Source of the DNA: Emcibacter sp.
GTDB taxonomy: Bacteria > Pseudomonadota > Alphaproteobacteria > Sphingomonadales > Emcibacteraceae
Length of the DNA: 64,000 nt
Assembly: GCA_021741205.1 (NCBI GenBank)
Contig: JAIOYI010000004.1
Span: 62,001 to 126,000, forward strand
Reading direction: 5' to 3'
Within the stretch, counting starts at the first letter, position 1, and each line of letters starts with the position of its first letter. Of the stretch, positions 45,891 to 55,718 are shown piece after piece. The translations under genes were made by a program, and so were the position numbers. The notes under the pieces were generated by a model that saw only the letters and a list, made by a program, of their open reading frames with translations, was not told the DNA's origin and did no database searches.

Positions 45891-46982
45891 TTAGGCAAGC
45901 ATATCATACATGTCTAGGGGCGTTTTGTGCTCTCCGCCGATTTCATTGATAAAGAAATCATAAAATTGATCCATATCTTGTAAAAATATTTCAAGTTCCT
46001 TGGTATTTGTAACGTAAGGTGTACCGCCAATTAATAATGAAGAACTATGATATGAATAATTAAAATGATATTGTCCAATATGGATCATTTTTCGAACCAT
46101 TCGGGTAATATCCTTAATATGAATTCCCTCTGATGTTAACGGAATGCGTTCTAAAAGTCGGGTATTAGCAAGTCCTCCAGCAACAAATGCCCGGAACCCA
46201 GTGGCGCCTGCAATTTTTGGATAGAGGAAACGTCCCCATCTTGCCAATAATCCATCATAACCACGAGAATTAGGCAGTTCGAGGATTTTTACCCCGTCAA
46301 CATCAAACCAGTAAGGTTGGGTTGGTAATCCAATAAAATTTGGTCCATGATCATGAGAAAAATTGGTATCTGCGATAACGCTGACATCAACTTTATAATC
46401 AAGTTCCTTTAATATACGCGCGGTATTTGGGCCTGCTCCATATCGTCCAGCTTTAAATATCTTTGGACGCTGGCCAGTTTTTTCTTCTATGGCATTGGTC
46501 AGGGTTTCTATCTTTTCCTTTTCTATGTCATAAGGCAAATTACCCGCATAGGAATTATACCGATTAACTTCCTCAACATAGGGAGGGGATACCCAAGGAT
46601 GAAGATGAGTGCCGATAAGGCATTCCCCCTTATCCGCCCAGTCTTTTAAAACGCCAATGGCTTCGTCATTTTCAACCACTGGATAATCAACGCAATAGGT
46701 TGGTACAATCCCATATTTCTTAAAAATATTTTGCGCCAAATGTTGAGAAGAGATATTATGAACAGATCTGCTTTTTCGATTGAAATCTTCAGACCAGTTA
46801 AATTCCTCTTCCGTATCAATGACCACTGTTAATAATGGCTTTGACCTAAAACAATGTGCTTTATTTTTCTTAGAAAACAAAAAGACACTCCAAATACATA
46901 TAATTAATATGATTACAATAAATAAATATAATAAACATTTGATTACAGAAAATAAGATTTTTCCCTGAATATAGATATACAT
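45891..46982 (-). CDS. WalW-like polysaccharide deacetylase
   Basis: A 363-residue protein with an N-terminal membrane helix (residues ~14-32) and a NodB-like domain of the WalW type: V-V-I-D-T-E-E-E-F-N-W gives the acidic first motif, G-T-H-L-H-P-W the His motif, and F-K-A-G-R-Y-G-A the third. The variant D-x-E-E first motif differs from the standard D-D. It is the second deacetylase of the glycan set and converges with the flippase gene. Confidence 0.8.
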   Translation of the reverse strand: MYIYIQGKILFSVIKCLLYLFIVIILIICIWSVFLFSKKNKAHCFRSKPLLTVVIDTEEEFNWSEDFNRKSRSVHNISSQHLAQNIFKKYGIVPTYCVDYPVVENDEAIGVLKDWADKGECLIGTHLHPWVSPPYVEEVNRYNSYAGNLPYDIEKEKIETLTNAIEEKTGQRPKIFKAGRYGAGPNTARILKELDYKVDVSVIADTNFSHDHGPNFIGLPTQPYWFDVDGVKILELPNSRGYDGLLARWGRFLYPKIAGATGFRAFVAGGLANTRLLERIPLTSEGIHIKDITRMVRKMIHIGQYHFNYSYHSSSLLIGGTPYVTNTKELEIFLQDMDQFYDFFINEIGGEHKTPLDMYDMLA

Positions 46983-47161
46983 TATTTTCCACGATTGAGT
47001 ATCTCTATTTCTTTCTTATTTCTTTATTTTGCGAATGTTTTTAATAAACCCGTATACTATAGCCTTAAATTCAATTTATGATCTCCTTAATTCATAGGTC
47101 AACAGATCAACATAATTTGGAAAATATCTAGTTAATGGCATATGGGTCTGATGAGGGTTTC

Positions 47162-47190
47162 TTGACATAGACTTGGAAAATGCATAAAGT
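47162..47190 (+). promoter_or_regulatory. Sigma-70-type promoter for the secreted pair
   Basis: TTGACA is a perfect -35 hexamer; 17 bases later TAAAGT matches four of six -10 positions. It lies 82 bases before the small secreted gene. Confidence 0.5.
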
Positions 47191-47271
47191 TTTATATATG
47201 AACAATTTGAGTATGGTATGGATTCAATTCAATCATCATTCATATGGTTTGATCATAAATATAAGGAAAAT

Positions 47272-47550
47272 ATGATGAACAGAATCGCAATCCTATTACT
47301 TGTTATGGTTTCTTTCGTTGTCTTTGGGGGGATATCAAAGGCAAATGAAACCGATAAAAAATTTTACAGTCGGTTATCACAACTTAACGATGAAATAAGA
47401 GCAATAGATGGAGGAACATCTGTAAAAGGTACAGCCTGCGAAGCACGGTTAACAATTTTAATAAATGAATTCCCTGATTTATATTTACAGAATTACGTTT
47501 GTGAACCCGATTCAAACGGGACAGCTCAAATCATGCTAAGGCAGTGGTAA
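47272..47550 (+). CDS. Small secreted protein of unknown function
   Basis: A 92-residue protein with a clean signal peptide (I-A-I-L-L-L-V-M-V-S-F-V-V-F-G-G-I-S-K-A). The mature ~70 residues include two Cys (T-A-C-E-A-R and Y-V-C-E-P), likely a disulphide, and a helical start. AAGGAAAA stands just upstream of tandem ATG codons (47272, 47275). I recognise no family. It is followed after 46 bases by the lectin-WD40 gene, so the two probably form an operon and work together. Confidence 0.7.
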   Translation: MMNRIAILLLVMVSFVVFGGISKANETDKKFYSRLSQLNDEIRAIDGGTSVKGTACEARLTILINEFPDLYLQNYVCEPDSNGTAQIMLRQW

Positions 47551-47596
47551 AATTCAGGTAAAGACGGCAATATCATAAATTAATAAGAGATGACGT

Positions 47597-50500
47597 ATGG
47601 TTAAGAAAATTATTTCCTTTATAGCTTTTGTGACAATCTTAGCTCAAGCCAGCGTCATGATAGGTATGGGGCTCGCCAATGGGGCCCCTCAAAGCACTTA
47701 TGGTAGAATTGTTATAGGACACAGTCAAAAATGTCTTGATGTACCAAATGGTACGACCGATGATAATATCCCTATCAATCAATTTCAGTGTGATGGCTCA
47801 CCAGAGCAGAACTTCACTCTTATGGATGTGGGGGGCGGTTATTTTCGTATTGTAGCCTCCCATAGCGGTAAGTGTCTTGATGTGCCGAACGCTATGATGA
47901 ACGATAATATAACCATCAATCAAACGCAGTGTGATTATTCTCCCGAACAGAGCTTTAAGCTCGTTCCCGTTGGTAACGATTATTATAATGTTGTGGCAAA
48001 GCACAGTGGCAAATGCGTCAATGTGTGGAATGGCTCAAATGACGACAACGCCGCAATCACCCAGCAACAATGCGACGGACAACAATATCAGATGTTTTGG
48101 TTCGCAGCATTGCCCGCAACAAACACGGTGCAGTCAACGCAGCAACAATCCACACAACAACAATCAAATCAGCAGCAGCTCGCCCAACAACAACTAGCCC
48201 AGCAAAAATTGGCGCAGCAGCAGCTCGCTCAACAACAACTCGCTCAACAACAACTAGCCCAGCAAAAATTGGCGCAGCAGCAGCTCGCTCAACAACAACT
48301 CGCCCAACAAAAATTGGCGCAACAACAACTCGCCCAGCAGAAATTGGCCCAACAACAGCAACAACAGCAACAGCAAATCCAAACTGGTGGGGTGATCAGT
48401 AGGCTGACGGAAATGCTTAATGTTAGTACCGAGACACAGACCATCGCCATTAGCCCGAATAGCTTGCGCATGGTCAGCGGGGGATGGGATAATATTCTCA
48501 CAATCTGGGATACCTCTGGCTCTTCATTGATCAAGGCCTTGACGATCCCGCTTCGGGGTCGTGGTGATTTGCTGCTTGATACGGCCTTCAGCCCAGACAG
48601 CAAGCGGATCGTGACGGGAAGCCGTCAAAATGGTGCTACCCTCGAAACAACCGTTCATGTGTGGGATGCTTATTCGGGGGCAGAGCTATTGGTTCTTCAG
48701 GGTGCTCCTGCTGAATTTTGTCGTGATGTGGCCTATGATCCAAGAGCACTCTATATTGCGGCTGGTTGCTTTAATCAGACGAGCGGGAAAAGCACACTTT
48801 ATATTTGGGATGCGAATACAGGTGCTCAATTATTGAATATTGATGGCGTGGCGGGTCCCGTGGTGTTTAGCCCTGACGGTAAACGTCTTACGGGCGGAAA
48901 TGGCCATGCTCAGACATTAAAACTGTTTGACATGGATACGGGCAATGAACTCATGACCCTTCAGGGAAGCGGCGTCGGAGGATTTCAGAGTGCAGTCTTT
49001 AATGCCAATAGCACCAGCATTTTGACCGGCAACGGTAATGGTACAATGACATTTTGGAATGCAAGCACTGGGCAAGAGATTATAAACTTTTTTGCCCATA
49101 CAAATGCAGTTAATGATGTTGCGGTCAGCTCGGACAACAGCCGTTTTGTCAGTGCAGGCGAAGATGGGACTCTTATATTATGGGATGGGAATTCAGGCCA
49201 AAAGCTCGCAACCTACAAGAATACGAAAGCCATCAGATCCGTGAGTATCACTGCCGATAACAAGCATATTATTGCGGGCGGTGATGATAATATGCTCAGA
49301 ATATTTGCTGATGGTGCCGTTGCCAGCACATCGCAAACAGGAACCCAAACAACCTTAGCCCAGCAGCAGCTCGCTCAACAGCAGCTCGCTCAACAACAAC
49401 TCGCTCAACAGCAGCTCGCTCAACAGCAACTCGCTCAACAGCAACTCGCTCAACAGCAACTCGCTCAACAACAGCAAGTCTCAACCGCGAGCAGCAATAA
49501 TTTGCCCGTGACTCAGTCCACAAGAGCCTACCTTCTCTATAACGATACCGCCAATAAGCTTTTCTTTGACACCTATGATCCCACCAGAGGAACATGGATG
49601 CCCATCAGCCTTGATCCTCATATGCAAATTGAAGTTGTTGGCATGACAATGGGCTCAGGAGGGCTTCAGGTGCGCATAGAAACCCAAGGTAAAGGGTATA
49701 ATCAATATGGCATGGAAGTGGGCGGCAGCTATCGTCTTTATGCCAATCCCCAAACCGGCATGTGGGACGTTAGCACAACACAGGCACCAAATGCTGTTGC
49801 GGTAGCCGCCGCCCAACAACAAGCTCAACAACAAGCTCAGCAGCAAACACAACAACAAAACCAACAACAGCTAGCGCAACAACAGAAAATTCAGCAGCTG
49901 CAGCAGCAATTGGCGCAACAGCAACAAGCGCAACAGCAGGGGCAAGTATCCAATGATCCATTAGCCAATGATCCCTATGTGCAAGCAAATATAGCTGCGG
50001 AAAAACTAAAATTACAGAGACTGACTCAGGGTCTGAATCCCGATGGTACGAAAAAGGAACCCGCTTGGGGGACTCCAGAGTATGACCTCTTGATGATAGA
50101 AAGAAGTAAACAACAGAAATATATTCGCATGGATAATGGGCCCCTTCCTGCGGTTGTTGCGCTTCATATTGAATATGTTGTTGCCAACAGGGTATCGAGG
50201 GGGACAGATACGGCGACGTCCGTTTTGTTTAATACTCTGGATATGGCCGTGAGCAAGATTGGCGGCAAGGCTGCTGGTGTTGGGGGGGCGTTGACTGTTG
50301 GTGCCCTGAGAGGCGTTGGCGTGAGCTTTGATGACTTATTGGGTTCAGACATTGTGGCTGGTAATGATGACCTGTTAATTAAGTTGGATAATATAGGGCA
50401 GTGGCCGCCGGCGTGGACGGGGTCCGATTCCATCTCAATTTCGAACGGGGAAAAAGTTGCTGTCCATATGTCATGGAATCTGCCGACAAATAGAGGTCAT

Positions 50501-50749
50501 CACATAGAACTTGAAGAGCGCGATTCTGCCAGCGACAATGATCACCTAGGATTTATTAGGTTTCCCGTTGGGAGCCTCAGGCCTGGGTTTGTTGAGGAAT
50601 ATGTGCTTCCCAATAGGAGTGAAGGAAGTCTGTATACGGTCAAGGTTTCTGTTACCAACCGTTTGGCAGATGAGCGAAATGGCTATGTCCACGCTTCTAT
50701 GTGGCACAACAATAAGGCCTATTGTTTCGCTGAGTTTGGCTGTAATTGA
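47597..50749 (+). CDS. Secreted lectin / LAQQQ-repeat / WD40 giant protein
   Basis: A 1050-residue exported protein of unusual build. Residues 1-30 are a signal peptide. Residues ~34-172 hold ricin-type beta-trefoil repeats, three copies of a K-C-L-D-V-P-N / Q-C-D pattern, a sugar-binding fold. Residues 195-254 are twelve LAQQQ/LAQQK units with Gln-rich flanks. Residues ~265-571 are WD40 blades (S-P-D-S-K-R-I-V-T-G, L-Y-I-W-D-A-N-T-G, L-I-L-W-D-G-N-S-G). Residues 587-626 are eight more LAQQQ units. A small beta domain (~641-728) and a third Gln tract (~737-783) follow, then a C-terminal region whose last ~130 residues (D-D-L-L-I-K-L-D-N, E-L-E-E-R-D-S-A-S-D-N-D-H-L-G) look like a C2-like beta sandwich. 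Two final Cys occur. No enzymatic site was seen. It could bind surface glycan and act as a scaffold. Confidence 0.8.
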   Translation: MVKKIISFIAFVTILAQASVMIGMGLANGAPQSTYGRIVIGHSQKCLDVPNGTTDDNIPINQFQCDGSPEQNFTLMDVGGGYFRIVASHSGKCLDVPNAMMNDNITINQTQCDYSPEQSFKLVPVGNDYYNVVAKHSGKCVNVWNGSNDDNAAITQQQCDGQQYQMFWFAALPATNTVQSTQQQSTQQQSNQQQLAQQQLAQQKLAQQQLAQQQLAQQQLAQQKLAQQQLAQQQLAQQKLAQQQLAQQKLAQQQQQQQQQIQTGGVISRLTEMLNVSTETQTIAISPNSLRMVSGGWDNILTIWDTSGSSLIKALTIPLRGRGDLLLDTAFSPDSKRIVTGSRQNGATLETTVHVWDAYSGAELLVLQGAPAEFCRDVAYDPRALYIAAGCFNQTSGKSTLYIWDANTGAQLLNIDGVAGPVVFSPDGKRLTGGNGHAQTLKLFDMDTGNELMTLQGSGVGGFQSAVFNANSTSILTGNGNGTMTFWNASTGQEIINFFAHTNAVNDVAVSSDNSRFVSAGEDGTLILWDGNSGQKLATYKNTKAIRSVSITADNKHIIAGGDDNMLRIFADGAVASTSQTGTQTTLAQQQLAQQQLAQQQLAQQQLAQQQLAQQQLAQQQLAQQQQVSTASSNNLPVTQSTRAYLLYNDTANKLFFDTYDPTRGTWMPISLDPHMQIEVVGMTMGSGGLQVRIETQGKGYNQYGMEVGGSYRLYANPQTGMWDVSTTQAPNAVAVAAAQQQAQQQAQQQTQQQNQQQLAQQQKIQQLQQQLAQQQQAQQQGQVSNDPLANDPYVQANIAAEKLKLQRLTQGLNPDGTKKEPAWGTPEYDLLMIERSKQQKYIRMDNGPLPAVVALHIEYVVANRVSRGTDTATSVLFNTLDMAVSKIGGKAAGVGGALTVGALRGVGVSFDDLLGSDIVAGNDDLLIKLDNIGQWPPAWTGSDSISISNGEKVAVHMSWNLPTNRGHHIELEERDSASDNDHLGFIRFPVGSLRPGFVEEYVLPNRSEGSLYTVKVSVTNRLADERNGYVHASMWHNNKAYCFAEFGCN
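48179..48358 (+). repeat. LAQQQ tandem tract 1 (15-nt units)
   Basis: Twelve 15-nt units encode LAQQQ or LAQQK. A higher 60-nt period is visible: 48181-48240 and 48241-48300 differ by one base. The near-identity shows recent tandem duplication. Gln codons mix CAA and CAG, so units are not all identical. Confidence 0.9.
49355..49474 (+). repeat. LAQQQ tandem tract 2 (15-nt units)
   Basis: Eight 15-nt units encode LAQQQ without the Lys variant of tract 1. Codons are CTC-GCT-CAA followed by CAG or CAA. It joins the WD40 part to the small beta domain. Confidence 0.9.
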
Positions 50750-51070
50750 ATGAGCCGATCCATGATCGGGTGTCAGCAAGACATTAGGACAGAACAATCA
50801 AGAGATTAGCAGCGGCTGATCTATTTGATTGCATTTAAGTTTGGCGTTGCGATGAAGTGTGCAAGTGTGATGCATGGTAATTGGGCAACTTTTGTCCATA
50901 TTTAGCTGCTCAAACCCTTAATCTAAGAATTTTTCTTTATATATAAAAAATATCTGTTACGCTAAAATTGACTTCGATCAAAGACTTTAGAAGATGTATT
51001 TATTAAGTATCTTTATATGAAGGGGTGTATCAACTTTTTCTAAATAATAATAACGCAGGAGAATTCTATT
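50750..51070. other. Intergenic gap before norC
   Basis: About 320 bases with no convincing gene. It holds a small perfect hairpin (CCGATC-CAT-GATCGG, 50755-50769) after the lectin-WD40 stop, which lacks a T-run, and the norC control region with an FNR-type box. The rest is A+T-rich with no repeats. Confidence 0.6.
50968..50981 (+). promoter_or_regulatory. FNR/DNR-type box before norC
   Basis: TTGAC-TTCG-ATCAA matches TTGAT-N4-ATCAA in nine of ten positions. Its centre is 96 bases before the norC ATG. A TAAGTA at 51004-51009 lies 22 bases after the box, the spacing expected for a -10 element at an FNR class II promoter. Confidence 0.65.
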
Positions 51071-51523
51071 ATGTCGGAAGGAATGACTAAGACTGCTGCC
51101 CGCAATATATTTTTTGGCGGGACAATTTTCTTTTTCGTTATATTCGTGGTTCTGACGGCTCAGAGCCATTTTTATATTCTGGAAGAGAGTACAGATGTGA
51201 GCACATTAACGGCATCTGTTGAAAGAGGCAAAAGGGTGTGGGAGGAAAACGCCTGTATCAATTGTCATACTTTATTTGGTGAGGGCGCTTATTTTGCCCC
51301 TGAACTTGGTAAGGTATGGGTGAAATTTGGTGGTGCGGATGATCCAGAAACGGGTCGTGAAACGCTCAAAGCATGGATGAACGCCATGCCAACAGGCATC
51401 GAAGGTCGCCGCCAAATGCCTCAATTTAATTTGACAGATCAAGAACATGAAGATCTTGCTGCATTTTTTGAGTGGATCAGTAGGGTTGACACCCAAAACT
51501 GGCCACCAAAGCCAGCAGAATAA
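51071..51523 (+). CDS. norC: Nitric oxide reductase subunit C
   Basis: A 150-residue membrane-anchored cytochrome c. One helix at residues ~13-30 is followed by the haem site C-I-N-C-H (62-66) and a distal Met in R-R-Q-M-P-Q. NorC takes electrons from periplasmic donors and passes them to NorB. AGGAGAATTC precedes the ATG. It opens norCBQD. Confidence 0.95.
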   Translation: MSEGMTKTAARNIFFGGTIFFFVIFVVLTAQSHFYILEESTDVSTLTASVERGKRVWEENACINCHTLFGEGAYFAPELGKVWVKFGGADDPETGRETLKAWMNAMPTGIEGRRQMPQFNLTDQEHEDLAAFFEWISRVDTQNWPPKPAE

Positions 51524-51540
51524 GGGAGTGGATTAATATT

Positions 51541-52860
51541 ATGAAATATCAAACACAAAAACTGGCTTATCCATATTTTATAGCGGCGATGGGCCTCTTC
51601 GTGGCACAGGTGCTTGGCGGTGCGATTGCCGGTACAATTTACGTTTTCCCGAATTTTTTATCGGAAATTATGCCATTTAACATTATTCGCATGATTCATA
51701 CCAATGCCTTGATTGTATGGTTATTGATGGGATTTTTTGGGGCGGCTTATTATCTGATCCCCGAAGAGGCTGAAACAGAAATTTACAGCCCGAAACTTGC
51801 ATGGATACAATTCTGGCTCTTTTTATTCGGAGCGGCGGCTGCGGTTGTGGGTTATTTGTTTGGGATACACGAAGGCCGTGAATTTCTGGAACAGCCTTTG
51901 TGGATTAAAGTAGCCATTGTGGTTGTGGCGCTTATGTTCCTTTTTAATATAACCATGACCTTGTTAAAGGGCAAAAAAACCGTTGTTGCTATTATCCTGA
52001 CTATGGGACTTTGGGGATTGGCTTTATTCTTCTTATTTGCCTTTTATAATCCTTCCAATCTGGCATTGGACAAAATGTATTGGTGGTATGTTGTCCATCT
52101 TTGGGTTGAGGGTGTATGGGAACTTATTCTGGCCTCTATCCTTGCCTTCATGCTGATTAAAATGACAGGTGTTGACCGTGAGGTTATTGAAAAATGGCTT
52201 TATGTGATCGTGGGTCTTGCCCTATTCTCTGGGCTTTTAGGAACGGGTCACCATTATTATTGGATCGGCACACCCGGTTACTGGCAATGGCTCGGCAGTA
52301 TCTTCTCTACTTTGGAAGTATTCCCTTTCCTTGCTATGGTGATATTCTCTTTCTATATTGTTCGTAAGGGAAATCGTAACCACCCCAACAAGGCAGCAAT
52401 TCTGTGGATTTTGGGCTGTACCGTGCTTTCCTTCTTTGGTGCAGGCGTATGGGGTTTTATGCATACACTGGCGCCCATTAATTACTATACCCACGGCACA
52501 CAGATAACGGCATCTCATGGACATTTGGCCTTCTTTGGCGCTTATGTTATGATTAACCTTGCCATTATCACCTATGCCATGCCGCATTTGCGGGGTCAAC
52601 AACCCTATAATCAGACCCTTAATATGTGGAGTTTCTGGATTATGTGTTCTGGCATGTGTTTCATGACCTTTACCTTGACGGCGGCGGGTGTTTTACAAAC
52701 CCATCTGGAACGGGTTATGGGGTTGGACTTCATGGAAGTGCAGGAACAGATCGCTCTCTTCTATTGGATGAGGCTCGGGTCTGGAGTGGTTGTGATACTG
52801 GGTGTCTTGCTTTTTGTTTACGCAACCTTTAGCAAAGGCAAAGAAAAACAAGCCAGCTAA
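51541..52860 (+). CDS. norB: Nitric oxide reductase subunit B
   Basis: A 439-residue, 12-helix haem-copper-family protein of the short cNOR form, which needs NorC. The ligand regions are visible: M-I-H-T-N-A-L-I-V-W, H-L-W-V-E-G-V-W-E with the Glu near the iron site, and G-T-G-H-H-Y-Y-W-I-G. It reduces two NO to N2O. It follows norC by 17 bases and ends at a hairpin pair before norQ. Confidence 0.96.
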   Translation: MKYQTQKLAYPYFIAAMGLFVAQVLGGAIAGTIYVFPNFLSEIMPFNIIRMIHTNALIVWLLMGFFGAAYYLIPEEAETEIYSPKLAWIQFWLFLFGAAAAVVGYLFGIHEGREFLEQPLWIKVAIVVVALMFLFNITMTLLKGKKTVVAIILTMGLWGLALFFLFAFYNPSNLALDKMYWWYVVHLWVEGVWELILASILAFMLIKMTGVDREVIEKWLYVIVGLALFSGLLGTGHHYYWIGTPGYWQWLGSIFSTLEVFPFLAMVIFSFYIVRKGNRNHPNKAAILWILGCTVLSFFGAGVWGFMHTLAPINYYTHGTQITASHGHLAFFGAYVMINLAIITYAMPHLRGQQPYNQTLNMWSFWIMCSGMCFMTFTLTAAGVLQTHLERVMGLDFMEVQEQIALFYWMRLGSGVVVILGVLLFVYATFSKGKEKQAS

Positions 52861-52863
52861 TAC

Positions 52864-52920
52864 AAGGATCACGATCCTTAAATTTAAGGCGGTGGCGGCT
52901 TTTCCTGTCACCGTCTTTTT
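52864..52920 (+). terminator. Double hairpin after norB
   Basis: AAGGATC-AC-GATCCTT (52864-52879) is a perfect stem; AAGGCGGTG pairs with CACCGTCTT (52886-52917) and T-run follows. It could end or attenuate the norCB transcript before norQD. Confidence 0.65.
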
Positions 52921-52951
52921 AATTTCTGATGATTATCTAGAGTAAAATAAA

Positions 52952-53737
52952 ATGACTGATGAAAAAATTCCGTTCTATCTGCCTTCTGCCAATGAATGCA
53001 CGCTTTTTGAGAAAGCCTATGAGAATGGTCTGCCGGTGATGTTAAAAGGCCCGACAGGATGCGGCAAGACCCGTTTTGTGGCCCATATGGCGGCACGACT
53101 TGGTCTCACCCTTAATACGGTTGCCTGCCATGATGATTTGACGGCGGCTGATCTTACGGGGCGATATCTTTTGAAGGGCGGTGAAACCCATTGGGTTGAT
53201 GGTCCCCTTACCCAATCCGTTCGTCATGGCGGTATATGCTATTTGGATGAGGTGGTCGAGGCCCGCAAAGACGTTACCGTTGTGCTGCATCCCCTTACTG
53301 ATGACAGACGGTTTTTACCCTTAGAAAGAACGGGAGAATTGTTGATCGCACCAGATAATTTTATGATGGTGATTTCCTATAATCCAGGCTATCAGAATAT
53401 TTTAAAATCTTTAAAACCGAGTACTCGTCAACGTTTCATCGGTATTCACTTTGATTATCCTAGTGCAGATCATGAAGTGGATATTATTATCAAGGAAACG
53501 GGCATTGATAGGGCACGTTGTGTGCCGCTTGTCAATCTTGCGCGGCGTATTCGTTCTTTAAAGGATCTTGATCTGGAGGAGGGGGCATCGACACGGTTAT
53601 TGGTTTATTGTGCAACCCTCATTATGGCAGGAATTTCTCCATTAGAGGCGACTCTGGCCACCTTAATAGAGCCTTTGAGTGATGATGAAAGTGCAAAGGA
53701 TGGGTTGATGGAAGTGGTGCAAGCCACCTTTGGTTAA
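52952..53737 (+). CDS. norQ: NorQ AAA+ ATPase
   Basis: A 261-residue MoxR-type AAA+ protein. Walker A is G-P-T-G-C-G-K-T (residues 33-40) and Walker B is I-C-Y-L-D-E-V. NorQ works with NorD to activate nitric oxide reductase. It sits after the norCB terminator and precedes norD by 22 bases. Confidence 0.93.
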   Translation: MTDEKIPFYLPSANECTLFEKAYENGLPVMLKGPTGCGKTRFVAHMAARLGLTLNTVACHDDLTAADLTGRYLLKGGETHWVDGPLTQSVRHGGICYLDEVVEARKDVTVVLHPLTDDRRFLPLERTGELLIAPDNFMMVISYNPGYQNILKSLKPSTRQRFIGIHFDYPSADHEVDIIIKETGIDRARCVPLVNLARRIRSLKDLDLEEGASTRLLVYCATLIMAGISPLEATLATLIEPLSDDESAKDGLMEVVQATFG

Positions 53738-53759
53738 GACTATTGCATAAGGAAACGGC

Positions 53760-55718
53760 GTGTTTGAATTTTTTGAACCTGAAGAATTGGTCGGTAAAAA
53801 ATGGCATATGCTTGTCCGTGACCAATCAAGCTATCCCCATTATAAGGACTGCGCTGTAAGGCTCGAAGACATCACGGAAATGATCAGTATATTTTTCCGA
53901 GGGATCGGTGGTGATCCGGGGATTGATGTTTCAAGCGTCAGTGAAACGTCCCAAAATCACAGACTTTCGTGGCGTATGCGGCTTGGCATGGATAATGAAC
54001 GGCTTCCCATGGCACGACGGGATAATGACAGTTTGTTATTGCCCAATGTTATAGATTATTTTCCAGATAAAGATTTAAACAGATCGCTCTATCTTTGGCT
54101 GGCGACTTTTCTGTCCTATGAAAGAGAAAAAACTACCATTACACCGTGCAATGCCTTGCATGGGGATTTGTTGTTTATAGCCGAGGCATGGCACACCACG
54201 GAAATTATTATGGAAGAATTTCCGGGTCTTCGAAAGAAATATAAGGATCTCTGTTGTGCCTTAAAGCAGATAAGACCCACGAGAAACCTCCCCACCTATG
54301 AGGCACGGTTAGAGAAAATCATTGGTGACTTGCTTTTCGAGGAAGGATCAAGCCATGACGAGGCCGTCGATTTGATGCGATTGATTGTCCGTAATGAAAA
54401 TTTGCCGAATTTTCCAAAAATTTCCAGAAAATATAAAAATTTTCTGCCCATTCCTTTGTGGGGAAAAATTGATGTGAGCCATAGGGATATTATGGAATCC
54501 ATGGACTATAACGAAGAGGATGAAAGCGGAAATAATATTTTCAAAGATTTAAGAGATGGGCGTAAACATACAGGTGTTCGCGAGGAAAACGATCAGACGG
54601 AAAAGGATGATCCCCTTGTGCTTAATCGCTTTGAAAAGGTGGTGTCGCTTGCGGAAATGGTCAATGTTAATAGGGCTATTGATGACGAGGAAGACGAGGA
54701 TGTGCAGTCTGCGGTTGATGATTTGGATGAACTTTCATTGACCCGTAACAAAAAGACAGTGGCCTCAACCATTAAGCTTGATATGTCCGTTGCTGGCCAG
54801 GGCATTGAAACGACGTCGCTGATTTCGGAATATTGTTATCCTGAATGGGATTACCGTTTGCAGGGCTATAGAGAAAATTACTGTGCTGTTTTTGCGGCTC
54901 TTGCCAAGGATGCCACGAAAGAGGAGGGGGAAGAACAATGGATGCAAGATACGGCCTCAAAACGTCGTATCAAAAGAATTCAACGCCAGTTCGAGGCATT
55001 GCGCCCCAGAAGACAAACAATCCATAGGCAGCAGGATGGTAAAGAACTTGATATAGATGCCATGATAAGATCACGCTGTGATATTGCCGCCATGGGGGAG
55101 GGAAGCGATCAGATTTATACGGATTACAAGAATCAGACCCGTGATCTTGCGGCGGCAATTCTTGCGGATGTATCCCTGTCCACGGATTCATGGCTTGATG
55201 GACGACGGGTTCTTGACGTGGAAAAGGAGGCGCTGCTGACTTTGGCGCTCGGATTAAAGGCCAGCGGCGATGACAATGCCATATATTGTTTTTCTTCTCG
55301 TAAGCGTCATAACGTTAGAGTGGACTGTCTTAAGGAATTTGATGAAGTAATGTCAGAATGTGTACAGCACAGAATTGCCGCACTAAAACCTGGATTTTAC
55401 ACCCGTATGGGGGCTGCAATACGTCATGTGACCAATGAACTTAAGGATCGCCCCAATCATCATAAACTTTTGCTTTTACTTAGTGACGGCAAACCCAATG
55501 ACATGGATCATTATGAGGGACGTTACGGCATCGAAGATACCCGTATGGCCATTCGGGAGGCAAGAAAGATTGGTATTGCCGTATTCGGTGTTACGGTTGA
55601 CGAGAAGGCACGGGATTATTTTCCCTATCTTTTTGGTCCAGGAGGAGGAGCCATTATTCCTCATATTGACAATCTGCCTGCGGCACTGCCTGCTATTTTC
55701 AGGAATCTTCTGGCCTAA
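53760..55718 (+). CDS. norD: NorD, VWA-domain activator of nitric oxide reductase
   Basis: A 652-residue protein. The C-terminal ~190 residues are a von Willebrand A domain with the metal-binding D-V-S-L-S motif (about residue 474) and S-D-G-K-P-N-D. A strongly acidic stretch (D-D-E-E-D-E-D) lies mid-protein. NorD pairs with NorQ to load or mature the non-haem iron of NorB. The start is GTG. It converges with the cupredoxin gene, only two bases apart. Confidence 0.93.
   Translation: MFEFFEPEELVGKKWHMLVRDQSSYPHYKDCAVRLEDITEMISIFFRGIGGDPGIDVSSVSETSQNHRLSWRMRLGMDNERLPMARRDNDSLLLPNVIDYFPDKDLNRSLYLWLATFLSYEREKTTITPCNALHGDLLFIAEAWHTTEIIMEEFPGLRKKYKDLCCALKQIRPTRNLPTYEARLEKIIGDLLFEEGSSHDEAVDLMRLIVRNENLPNFPKISRKYKNFLPIPLWGKIDVSHRDIMESMDYNEEDESGNNIFKDLRDGRKHTGVREENDQTEKDDPLVLNRFEKVVSLAEMVNVNRAIDDEEDEDVQSAVDDLDELSLTRNKKTVASTIKLDMSVAGQGIETTSLISEYCYPEWDYRLQGYRENYCAVFAALAKDATKEEGEEQWMQDTASKRRIKRIQRQFEALRPRRQTIHRQQDGKELDIDAMIRSRCDIAAMGEGSDQIYTDYKNQTRDLAAAILADVSLSTDSWLDGRRVLDVEKEALLTLALGLKASGDDNAIYCFSSRKRHNVRVDCLKEFDEVMSECVQHRIAALKPGFYTRMGAAIRHVTNELKDRPNHHKLLLLLSDGKPNDMDHYEGRYGIEDTRMAIREARKIGIAVFGVTVDEKARDYFPYLFGPGGGAIIPHIDNLPAALPAIFRNLLA

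What the first reader, a model, noticed from the sequence alone, without database searches (positions are those of the whole stretch)
47272..50749. Secreted lectin-WD40-repeat protein with a small secreted partner
Seen: a signal peptide, ricin-type lectin repeats, WD40 blades and two to three Gln-rich LAQQQ linkers in one exported protein, next to a 92-residue two-Cys secreted protein. Known: each fold exists alone in bacteria. Inference: this linear order looks rare, and the pair may form a glycan-binding scaffold made together with nearby polysaccharide deacetylases and a flippase.
Basis: partly seen in the sequence, partly recalled or inferred. Interest (0 to 1): 0.85.

Follow-up and report, generated by a model that had tools for sequence, protein, structure and literature searches.

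The report
Secreted lectin-propeller protein with small partner
A bacterium of the Emcibacter group carries a two-gene unit that makes an exported multi-domain protein with a sugar-binding-type head, an interaction propeller and a conserved tail of unknown fold, plus a small exported partner; the pair is real and looks rare, but its job is still inferred.

Summary
The 92-aa gene 46 bases upstream is a second exported protein. Of the genomes searched, one other (MAG NORP123, same genus) has the intact pair (71% and 52% identity) behind a shared promoter block but among other neighbours. OFTM17 keeps a deleted, stop-bearing remnant without the small gene; in NORP208 only the 3' end is on the contig. 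So the pair is an accessory unit of its own, and the link to nearby polysaccharide genes is not supported.

New here: (1) the C-terminal block has a distant homologue (E 6.9e-11) in an exported trefoil + VHL-domain protein from another class; (2) the 3' end is mosaic: synonymous difference to NORP123 falls from 0.5-0.8 to 0.12 (aa 905-990) and 0.28 (aa 991-1050), and all ambiguous bases of the 19 kb fetched there lie in the gene's last 540 bases.

Most likely a modular extracellular or periplasmic bridging lectin with a dedicated small partner. Function, sugar specificity and partner binding are inference. New variant of a known kind.

The parts
47162..47190 (+). sigma-70-type promoter TTGACA-17-TAAAGT, likely of the pair
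   Evidence: 10 of 12 consensus, though the scan as a whole is only modestly above chance (15 sites, 9.8 expected); GGTTTCTTGACAT, 16 bases, TAAAGTT upstream of the small gene in both own and NORP123; the 13-base identical run is reached in 0 of 200 Markov shuffles
47272..47550 (+). small exported protein, 92 aa, 2 Cys, no known family
   Evidence: Pfam and NCBIfam hits far below cut-off (best: NORP123 copy to lipoprotein YqhH, E 0.0027, 18 bits against a cut-off of 120)
47597..50749 (+). large exported multi-domain protein, 1050 aa
47597..47680 (+). signal peptide, about aa 1-28
   Evidence: read from the sequence: K-rich start, hydrophobic core, Ala-containing end (cleavage rule recalled); aa 1-33 are 45% identical in NORP123, the lowest of nine segments tabulated
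47699..48097 (+). ricin-type beta-trefoil, three repeats, aa 35-167, two Cys per repeat
48137..48376 (+). Gln-rich linker 1, LAQQQ/LAQQK pentads, aa ~181-260
48404..49312 (+). WD40 propeller, about seven blades, aa ~270-572
49355..49480 (+). Gln-rich linker 2, LAQQQ pentads, aa ~587-628
49505..49792 (+). orphan domain, aa 637-732, about 79% identical in NORP123
   Evidence: no Pfam or plasmid match
49814..49939 (+). Gln-rich linker 3, aa ~740-781
50135..50746 (+). conserved C-terminal block, aa 847-1050; aa ~905-1050 possibly C2-like and mosaic at DNA level

Best explanation
A self-contained two-gene transcription unit makes two Sec-exported proteins, probably disulfide-bonded. The large one is a bead-on-string bridging protein. 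The N-terminal trefoil binds a carbohydrate (inferred). Gln-rich helical spacers hold the domains apart (predicted, low confidence). The WD40 propeller docks one or more proteins (inferred from the fold). The C-terminal block, perhaps a C2-like sandwich, docks the protein to a second surface such as membrane lipid or an anionic glycan, possibly with calcium (inferred). The small protein, encoded first, is most likely a dedicated partner that helps fold, hold or dock the large one (inferred from co-conservation). The unit is an accessory trait that is gained, lost and recombined within Emcibacter-group bacteria, not part of the neighbouring polysaccharide or nitric-oxide-reductase genes.
For: Shown: domain calls; conserved Cys (14, 15, 73); intact pair in NORP123 behind a shared promoter block (7, 8, 14, 15, 110, 112) with other neighbours; purifying selection on trefoil, propeller and middle domain between own and NORP123 (pN 0.10-0.18 against pS 0.61-0.84); the C-terminal block found behind a trefoil in another exported protein; patchiness (4 of 396 genomes of the order; a remnant in G013); mosaic 3' end. 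Inferred: ligand, docking, surface bridging, partner role.
Against: No expression, localisation or binding data. By eye, against recalled ricin contacts, the trefoil keeps the Asp in two of three repeats, an aromatic in one, and has Glu where Asn is usual in two, so canonical galactose binding may be lost. Pfam's C2 model does not match; C2 chains score only E 0.17-1.4 with the block's profile, and the G982 copy alone gives TRAF4 and a T-cell receptor chain instead, E 0.6-1.1. AlphaFold gave no usable model of trefoil, middle or C-terminal parts. Only two intact pairs argue co-conservation, and the small gene is under weaker constraint (pN 0.24, pS 0.37).
Confidence: 0.45

Rival explanations
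1. A lectin-aimed secreted factor acting on other cells (predator, competitor or animal/algal cell): trefoil for targeting, C-terminal block for membrane contact, small protein as a protective or carrier partner.
For: Three of the seven PDB matches of the trefoil carry names of that kind (7y78, 8bad, 1vcl). Patchy presence, a remnant and recombination at the C-terminal block fit a conflict gene.
Against: No catalytic or pore-forming family above cut-off in either protein (aa 1-178 alone do match CDtoxinA, PF03498, above its cut-off, but that is itself a trefoil fold, recalled) and no PADLOC match. The C-terminal block is the part found in all four genomes, whereas conflict genes usually vary there (recalled). 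The small gene precedes rather than follows and is itself exported.
Confidence: 0.2
2. A piece of the cell's own polysaccharide surface: the lectin binds the exopolysaccharide made by the neighbouring genes and holds it to the cell.
For: Flippase, GNAT, ATP-grasp-like protein and two deacetylase-like genes lie within about 6.2 kb. The trefoil's best natural solved match is the lectin domain of a galactan-acting enzyme (3vsf; enzyme identity recalled).
Against: Opposite-strand gene in between, own promoter, no such neighbours in NORP123 (that MAG is 69% complete and has no match to the deacetylase-like gene at all), and in 7 of 7 fetched relatives that gene lies beside norC without the pair.
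Confidence: 0.15
3. A decaying or lineage-specific accessory gene with no strong current function.
For: Present in 4 of 16 genomes of the genus, broken in one, cut by a contig end in another; pN about equal to pS in aa 905-990.
Against: The own and NORP123 copies are both open over about 1000 codons although synonymous sites are near saturation in most of the gene, with strong constraint on trefoil and middle domain.
Confidence: 0.12

Closest known systems
R-type (ricin B) lectins / CBM13, nearest solved natural chain 3vsf (E 7.8e-17) and designed ThreeFoil 3pg0 (E 1.9e-28)
   Same: three-fold repeated trefoil with LDV, LDV, VNV motifs and a QxF variant of QxW in each repeat
   Different: two Cys per repeat; recalled sugar-contact Asn replaced by Glu in repeats 1 and 2; joined to WD40 and a C-terminal block instead of an enzyme
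Bacterial WD40 propellers, e.g. T. curvata PkwA 5yzv (E 7.8e-23, target TM 0.91)
   Same: WD40 propeller, 25% identity
   Different: exported, with two conserved Cys of its own (C375, C391); of the 20 plasmid rows shown, all map to the WD40 part and are annotated as WD40, caspase, kinase, NB-ARC, TIR, peptidase, HTH or ribosome-assembly proteins
   Same: signal peptide, a trefoil, then two blocks in the same order as the C-terminal block here (30% over 112 aa, E 3e-10; second block E 7e-4)
   Different: no WD40 hit, no Gln-rich linkers; two similar segments of another kind in front (by eye), VHL beta domain behind; the one small ORF compared on its 6.4-kb contig is not similar to the small gene (E 1.3)
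C2 domains (PKC gamma/alpha, synaptotagmin-5, MCTP2)
   Same: weak profile hits; the PKC gamma alignment shares a D-x-x-S-x-N-D-x-(L/M)-G loop
   Different: no significant match and no Pfam C2 hit

Membership tests
R-type (ricin B) lectin domain | three trefoil repeats above Pfam cut-offs | tested here: met
   PF14200 147.7 bits (cut-off 25.6), PF00652 62.4 bits (cut-off 29); three repeats read
R-type (ricin B) lectin domain | sugar-contact residues (recalled: Asp, aromatic, Asn/Gln) | tested here: inconclusive
   by eye: Asp in repeats 1 and 2, Asn in 3; aromatic only in 1; Glu for the usual Asn in 1 and 2
R-type (ricin B) lectin domain | binds carbohydrate | not testable with these tools
   needs a glycan array
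WD40 beta-propeller | repeats and propeller fold | tested here: met
   PF00400 E 4.5e-28; model pLDDT 58-92 by 10-residue block over aa 271-570; Foldseek
C2 domain | match to the family model | tested here: not met
   no PF00168 hit at E <= 10; PDB C2 chains only at E 0.17-1.4; none with the G982 copy alone
C2 domain | calcium-loop motif | tested here: inconclusive
   pattern seen in A7 and in the printed PKC gamma alignment; motif knowledge recalled
Neighbouring polysaccharide / exosortase A gene set | conserved linkage of the pair with these genes | tested here: not met
   absent beside the pair in NORP123; deacetylase-like gene and norC linked without the pair in 7 of 7 fetched relatives
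Known anti-phage defence systems | PADLOC model match | tested here: not met
   0 families for both proteins at E <= 0.01
Two-gene unit | small gene beside every intact large gene | tested here: met
   2 of 2 intact (own, NORP123); lacking beside the broken G013 remnant; G001 not testable (contig end)

The most novel reading that the evidence does not exclude
The pair is a horizontally exchanged extracellular bridging system of a new design: lectin head, protein-docking propeller and a recombining membrane- or glycan-docking tail, loaded or matured by a dedicated small exported partner. The tail block belongs to an unnamed family that links trefoil lectins to other docking domains (WD40 here, VHL in another class), and related populations swap the tail.
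Probability: 0.22. Interest if true: 0.6.

Novelty: new variant of a known kind. Interest (0 to 1): 0.38.

Why it matters
If right, it adds an unusual domain order to exported bacterial lectins, defines a conserved C-terminal block without a Pfam family that occurs with trefoils and other docking folds in two bacterial classes, and gives a case where a protein's end, not the whole gene, seems to be exchanged between related populations. It makes the role of an exported bacterial WD40 propeller testable in one small operon.

Tried and rejected
Phage or plasmid origin: no relative of the large protein in phages; in viral contigs none for the C-terminal profile, the small protein or the G982 block (pattern-based; the whole protein was not scanned there); on plasmids none for the C-terminal part, the G982 block, the middle domain or the small protein. 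The whole protein hits 278 of 72,556 plasmid records, none covering 80%; the 20 rows shown map to the WD40 part. A tRNA was found only beside the G013 remnant.

Repeated 3' cassette in the own genome: rejected, one copy. Overlapping antisense gene as the cause of low synonymous change: over the last 147 codons every antisense frame has 5-9 stops in the three longer copies. Against this, one codon-aligned antisense frame is open over residues 985-1051 in all four copies (989-1051 in L026, which starts there); it does not cover most of aa 905-990, where pS is lowest, so I do not think it explains the drop, but it is not excluded as a small gene.

Structure: full-length model useful only for the propeller; C-terminal model unusable, mean pLDDT 35, so it was not searched. 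The genome-contig scan with the whole protein found nothing; the one with the C-terminal profile worked. An FNR-like box upstream of the small gene in NORP123 has no exact match at the own site, so regulation by it was dropped.

Papers: in the listings of searches (open-licence PMC only) I saw no title or abstract start that describes this architecture. I read only passages of PMC5587647 and PMC9426424; all others were seen as listings.
Full report
What is there. The large ORF 47597-50749 encodes 1050 aa and the small ORF from 47272 encodes 92 aa. Pfam places a ricin-type trefoil at aa 35-167 and WD40 repeats between about aa 282 and 572. A full-length AlphaFold model is confident only for the propeller (27 strands, aa 270-571; the trefoil and everything after aa 572 are under pLDDT 50); Foldseek matches it to WD40 propellers. 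Three Gln-rich linkers (55-68% Q) separate the domains. Two regions have no Pfam family: aa 637-732 and aa 847-1050. The large protein has 10 Cys (six in the trefoil, two in the propeller, two at the C-terminal end), all with counterparts in the homologue.

Relatives of the pair. Of 60 genomes searched, own included, 8 have some match to the large protein, but only own and G004 cover it end to end; the rest are a C-terminal piece plus a trefoil fragment (G013), a C-terminal piece (G001), WD40-only hits (G059, G008, G049) or a linker hit (G058). The small protein is in 2 of the same 60 and in 2 of 392 genomes of the order: own and G004. Large proteins are 71% identical, small ones 52%. In G004 the small gene lies 97 bases upstream (46 here), and GGTTTCTTGACAT, 16 bases, TAAAGTT lies upstream of it in both; the 13-base run was reached in 0 of 200 Markov shuffles. 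Promoter-like sites as a class are only modestly above chance in the region (15 against 9.8). G013 holds a trefoil fragment fused to the C-terminal block with an in-frame stop, no small gene, near tRNA-Leu. In G001 the contig ends inside the gene.

The C-terminal block. Its profile hits 4 of 396 genomes of the order, all one genus, 1 of 385 of the class (own) and 2 of 259 of the phylum: own and G982, E 6.9e-11. The G982 protein (868 aa from its ATG, signal peptide) has a trefoil (PF14200 E 7.7e-7), then two blocks in the same order as here (BLASTP 3e-10 and 7e-4), then a VHL beta domain (E 2.7e-7). So the block accompanies trefoils in exported proteins of two classes. Its fold is open: C2 domains are among the best PDB profile hits, but at E 0.17-1.4 and beside unrelated chains (UvrA, RNA polymerase); the G982 copy alone hits TRAF4 and a T-cell receptor chain instead; Pfam C2 does not match. 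The separate model failed.

Mosaic 3' end. Between own and NORP123, pS is 0.84 in the trefoil, 0.61 in WD40, 0.67 in the middle domain and 0.52 at aa 847-904, then 0.12 (bootstrap 0.04-0.20) at aa 905-990 and 0.28 (0.14-0.44) at aa 991-1050; pN in aa 905-990 is 0.14. norB between own and six relatives has pS 0.65-0.74, and one gene shared with G004 has 0.73. Own against the G013 piece after its stop has pS 0.38, own against G001's 62 codons 0.30, and G004 against G001 0.10. The 19 kb fetched around the pair in NORP123 hold 11 ambiguous bases, all at L015:12542-12962, inside the gene's last 540 bases. The small gene is intermediate (pS 0.37, 0.23-0.51). Recombination of the 3' end between related populations is the simplest reading; a chimeric assembly of the NORP123 contig is not excluded, nor is a short antisense frame open over residues 985-1051 in all four copies. 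A paper on North Pond MAGs that bear NORP names reports that homologous recombination is common there; NORP123, NORP208 and Emcibacter do not occur in its main text (passages, PMC9426424), so that the two MAGs belong to that series is inferred from their names.

Neighbourhood. In 7 of 7 fetched regions of other genus members the 45891 gene lies about 1.1 kb from norC on the same strand (norBQD follow in six; in G005 the contig ends within norB) and the pair is absent. In the five whose ORFs I listed, one gene lies between them; for G012 it is hydrolase 1 of the exosortase A system. In the own genome hydrolase 1, the O-ligase and wecB lie about 85-88 kb away on the same contig, while the 45891 gene (inverted) and norCBQD flank the pair. 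So the own locus is rearranged, and closeness to polysaccharide genes is not a conserved feature. The label deacetylase for 45891 is itself weak: PF01522 E 0.022, below cut-off, no NCBIfam hit; that of 41133 is firm (PF01522 E 2.7e-15).

How rare. PF14200 at E <= 1e-8 occurs in 5 of 385 alphaproteobacterial genomes; none of the other four proteins has a WD40 hit at E <= 0.01. On plasmids no record covers 80% of the protein; phages have no match. I could not search protein databases, so the same order may exist elsewhere. A systematic study of prokaryotic WD40 proteins contains none of the words ricin, lectin or signal peptide in its main text (word search, PMC5587647).

Interpretation. The best-supported picture is an exported, modular, bridging lectin with a dedicated small partner, kept as an accessory unit. 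Shown: export-type features, domains, co-conservation in two genomes, shared promoter block, patchiness, mosaic end. Inferred: sugar binding (contact residues only partly kept, by eye), propeller docking, C-terminal docking, partner role. Rival readings are a lectin-aimed factor against other cells, a cell-surface polysaccharide anchor, and a near-neutral accessory gene.

Noticed in passing
window 45891-55718: norCBQD and the neighbouring deacetylase-like gene have moved together in the own genome: other genus members keep them beside exosortase-A-associated genes, which here lie about 85-88 kb away; the deacetylase-like gene is inverted.
   Followed up: partly
window 50968-50981: FNR/NNR-type box (name recalled) TTGACTTCGATCAA upstream of norC; the pattern occurs 5 times in the window against 0.5 expected, and 10 of 10 fetched norC loci (L037-L046, own included) have one about 90-140 bases upstream of norC.
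   Followed up: partly
L015:9565-9578: FNR-type box TTGACATAAATCAA about 86 bases upstream of the small gene in NORP123, no exact match at the own site.
   Followed up: no
L016:8665-9430: The G013 remnant ends about 40 bases from the 3' end of a tRNA-Leu gene, possibly a trace of site-specific integration.
   Followed up: no
L067:937-3543: Exported bacterial protein with a trefoil, the C-terminal-type block and a VHL beta domain.
   Followed up: partly
window 50546-50797 and 985-1051 of the large protein: A codon-aligned antisense frame is open over the last ~67 codons of the large gene in all four copies.
   Followed up: partly
L019:1548-4415 (G059): 955-aa WD40 protein whose N-terminus reads like a TIR domain, from the same order (TIR by eye).
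   Followed up: no
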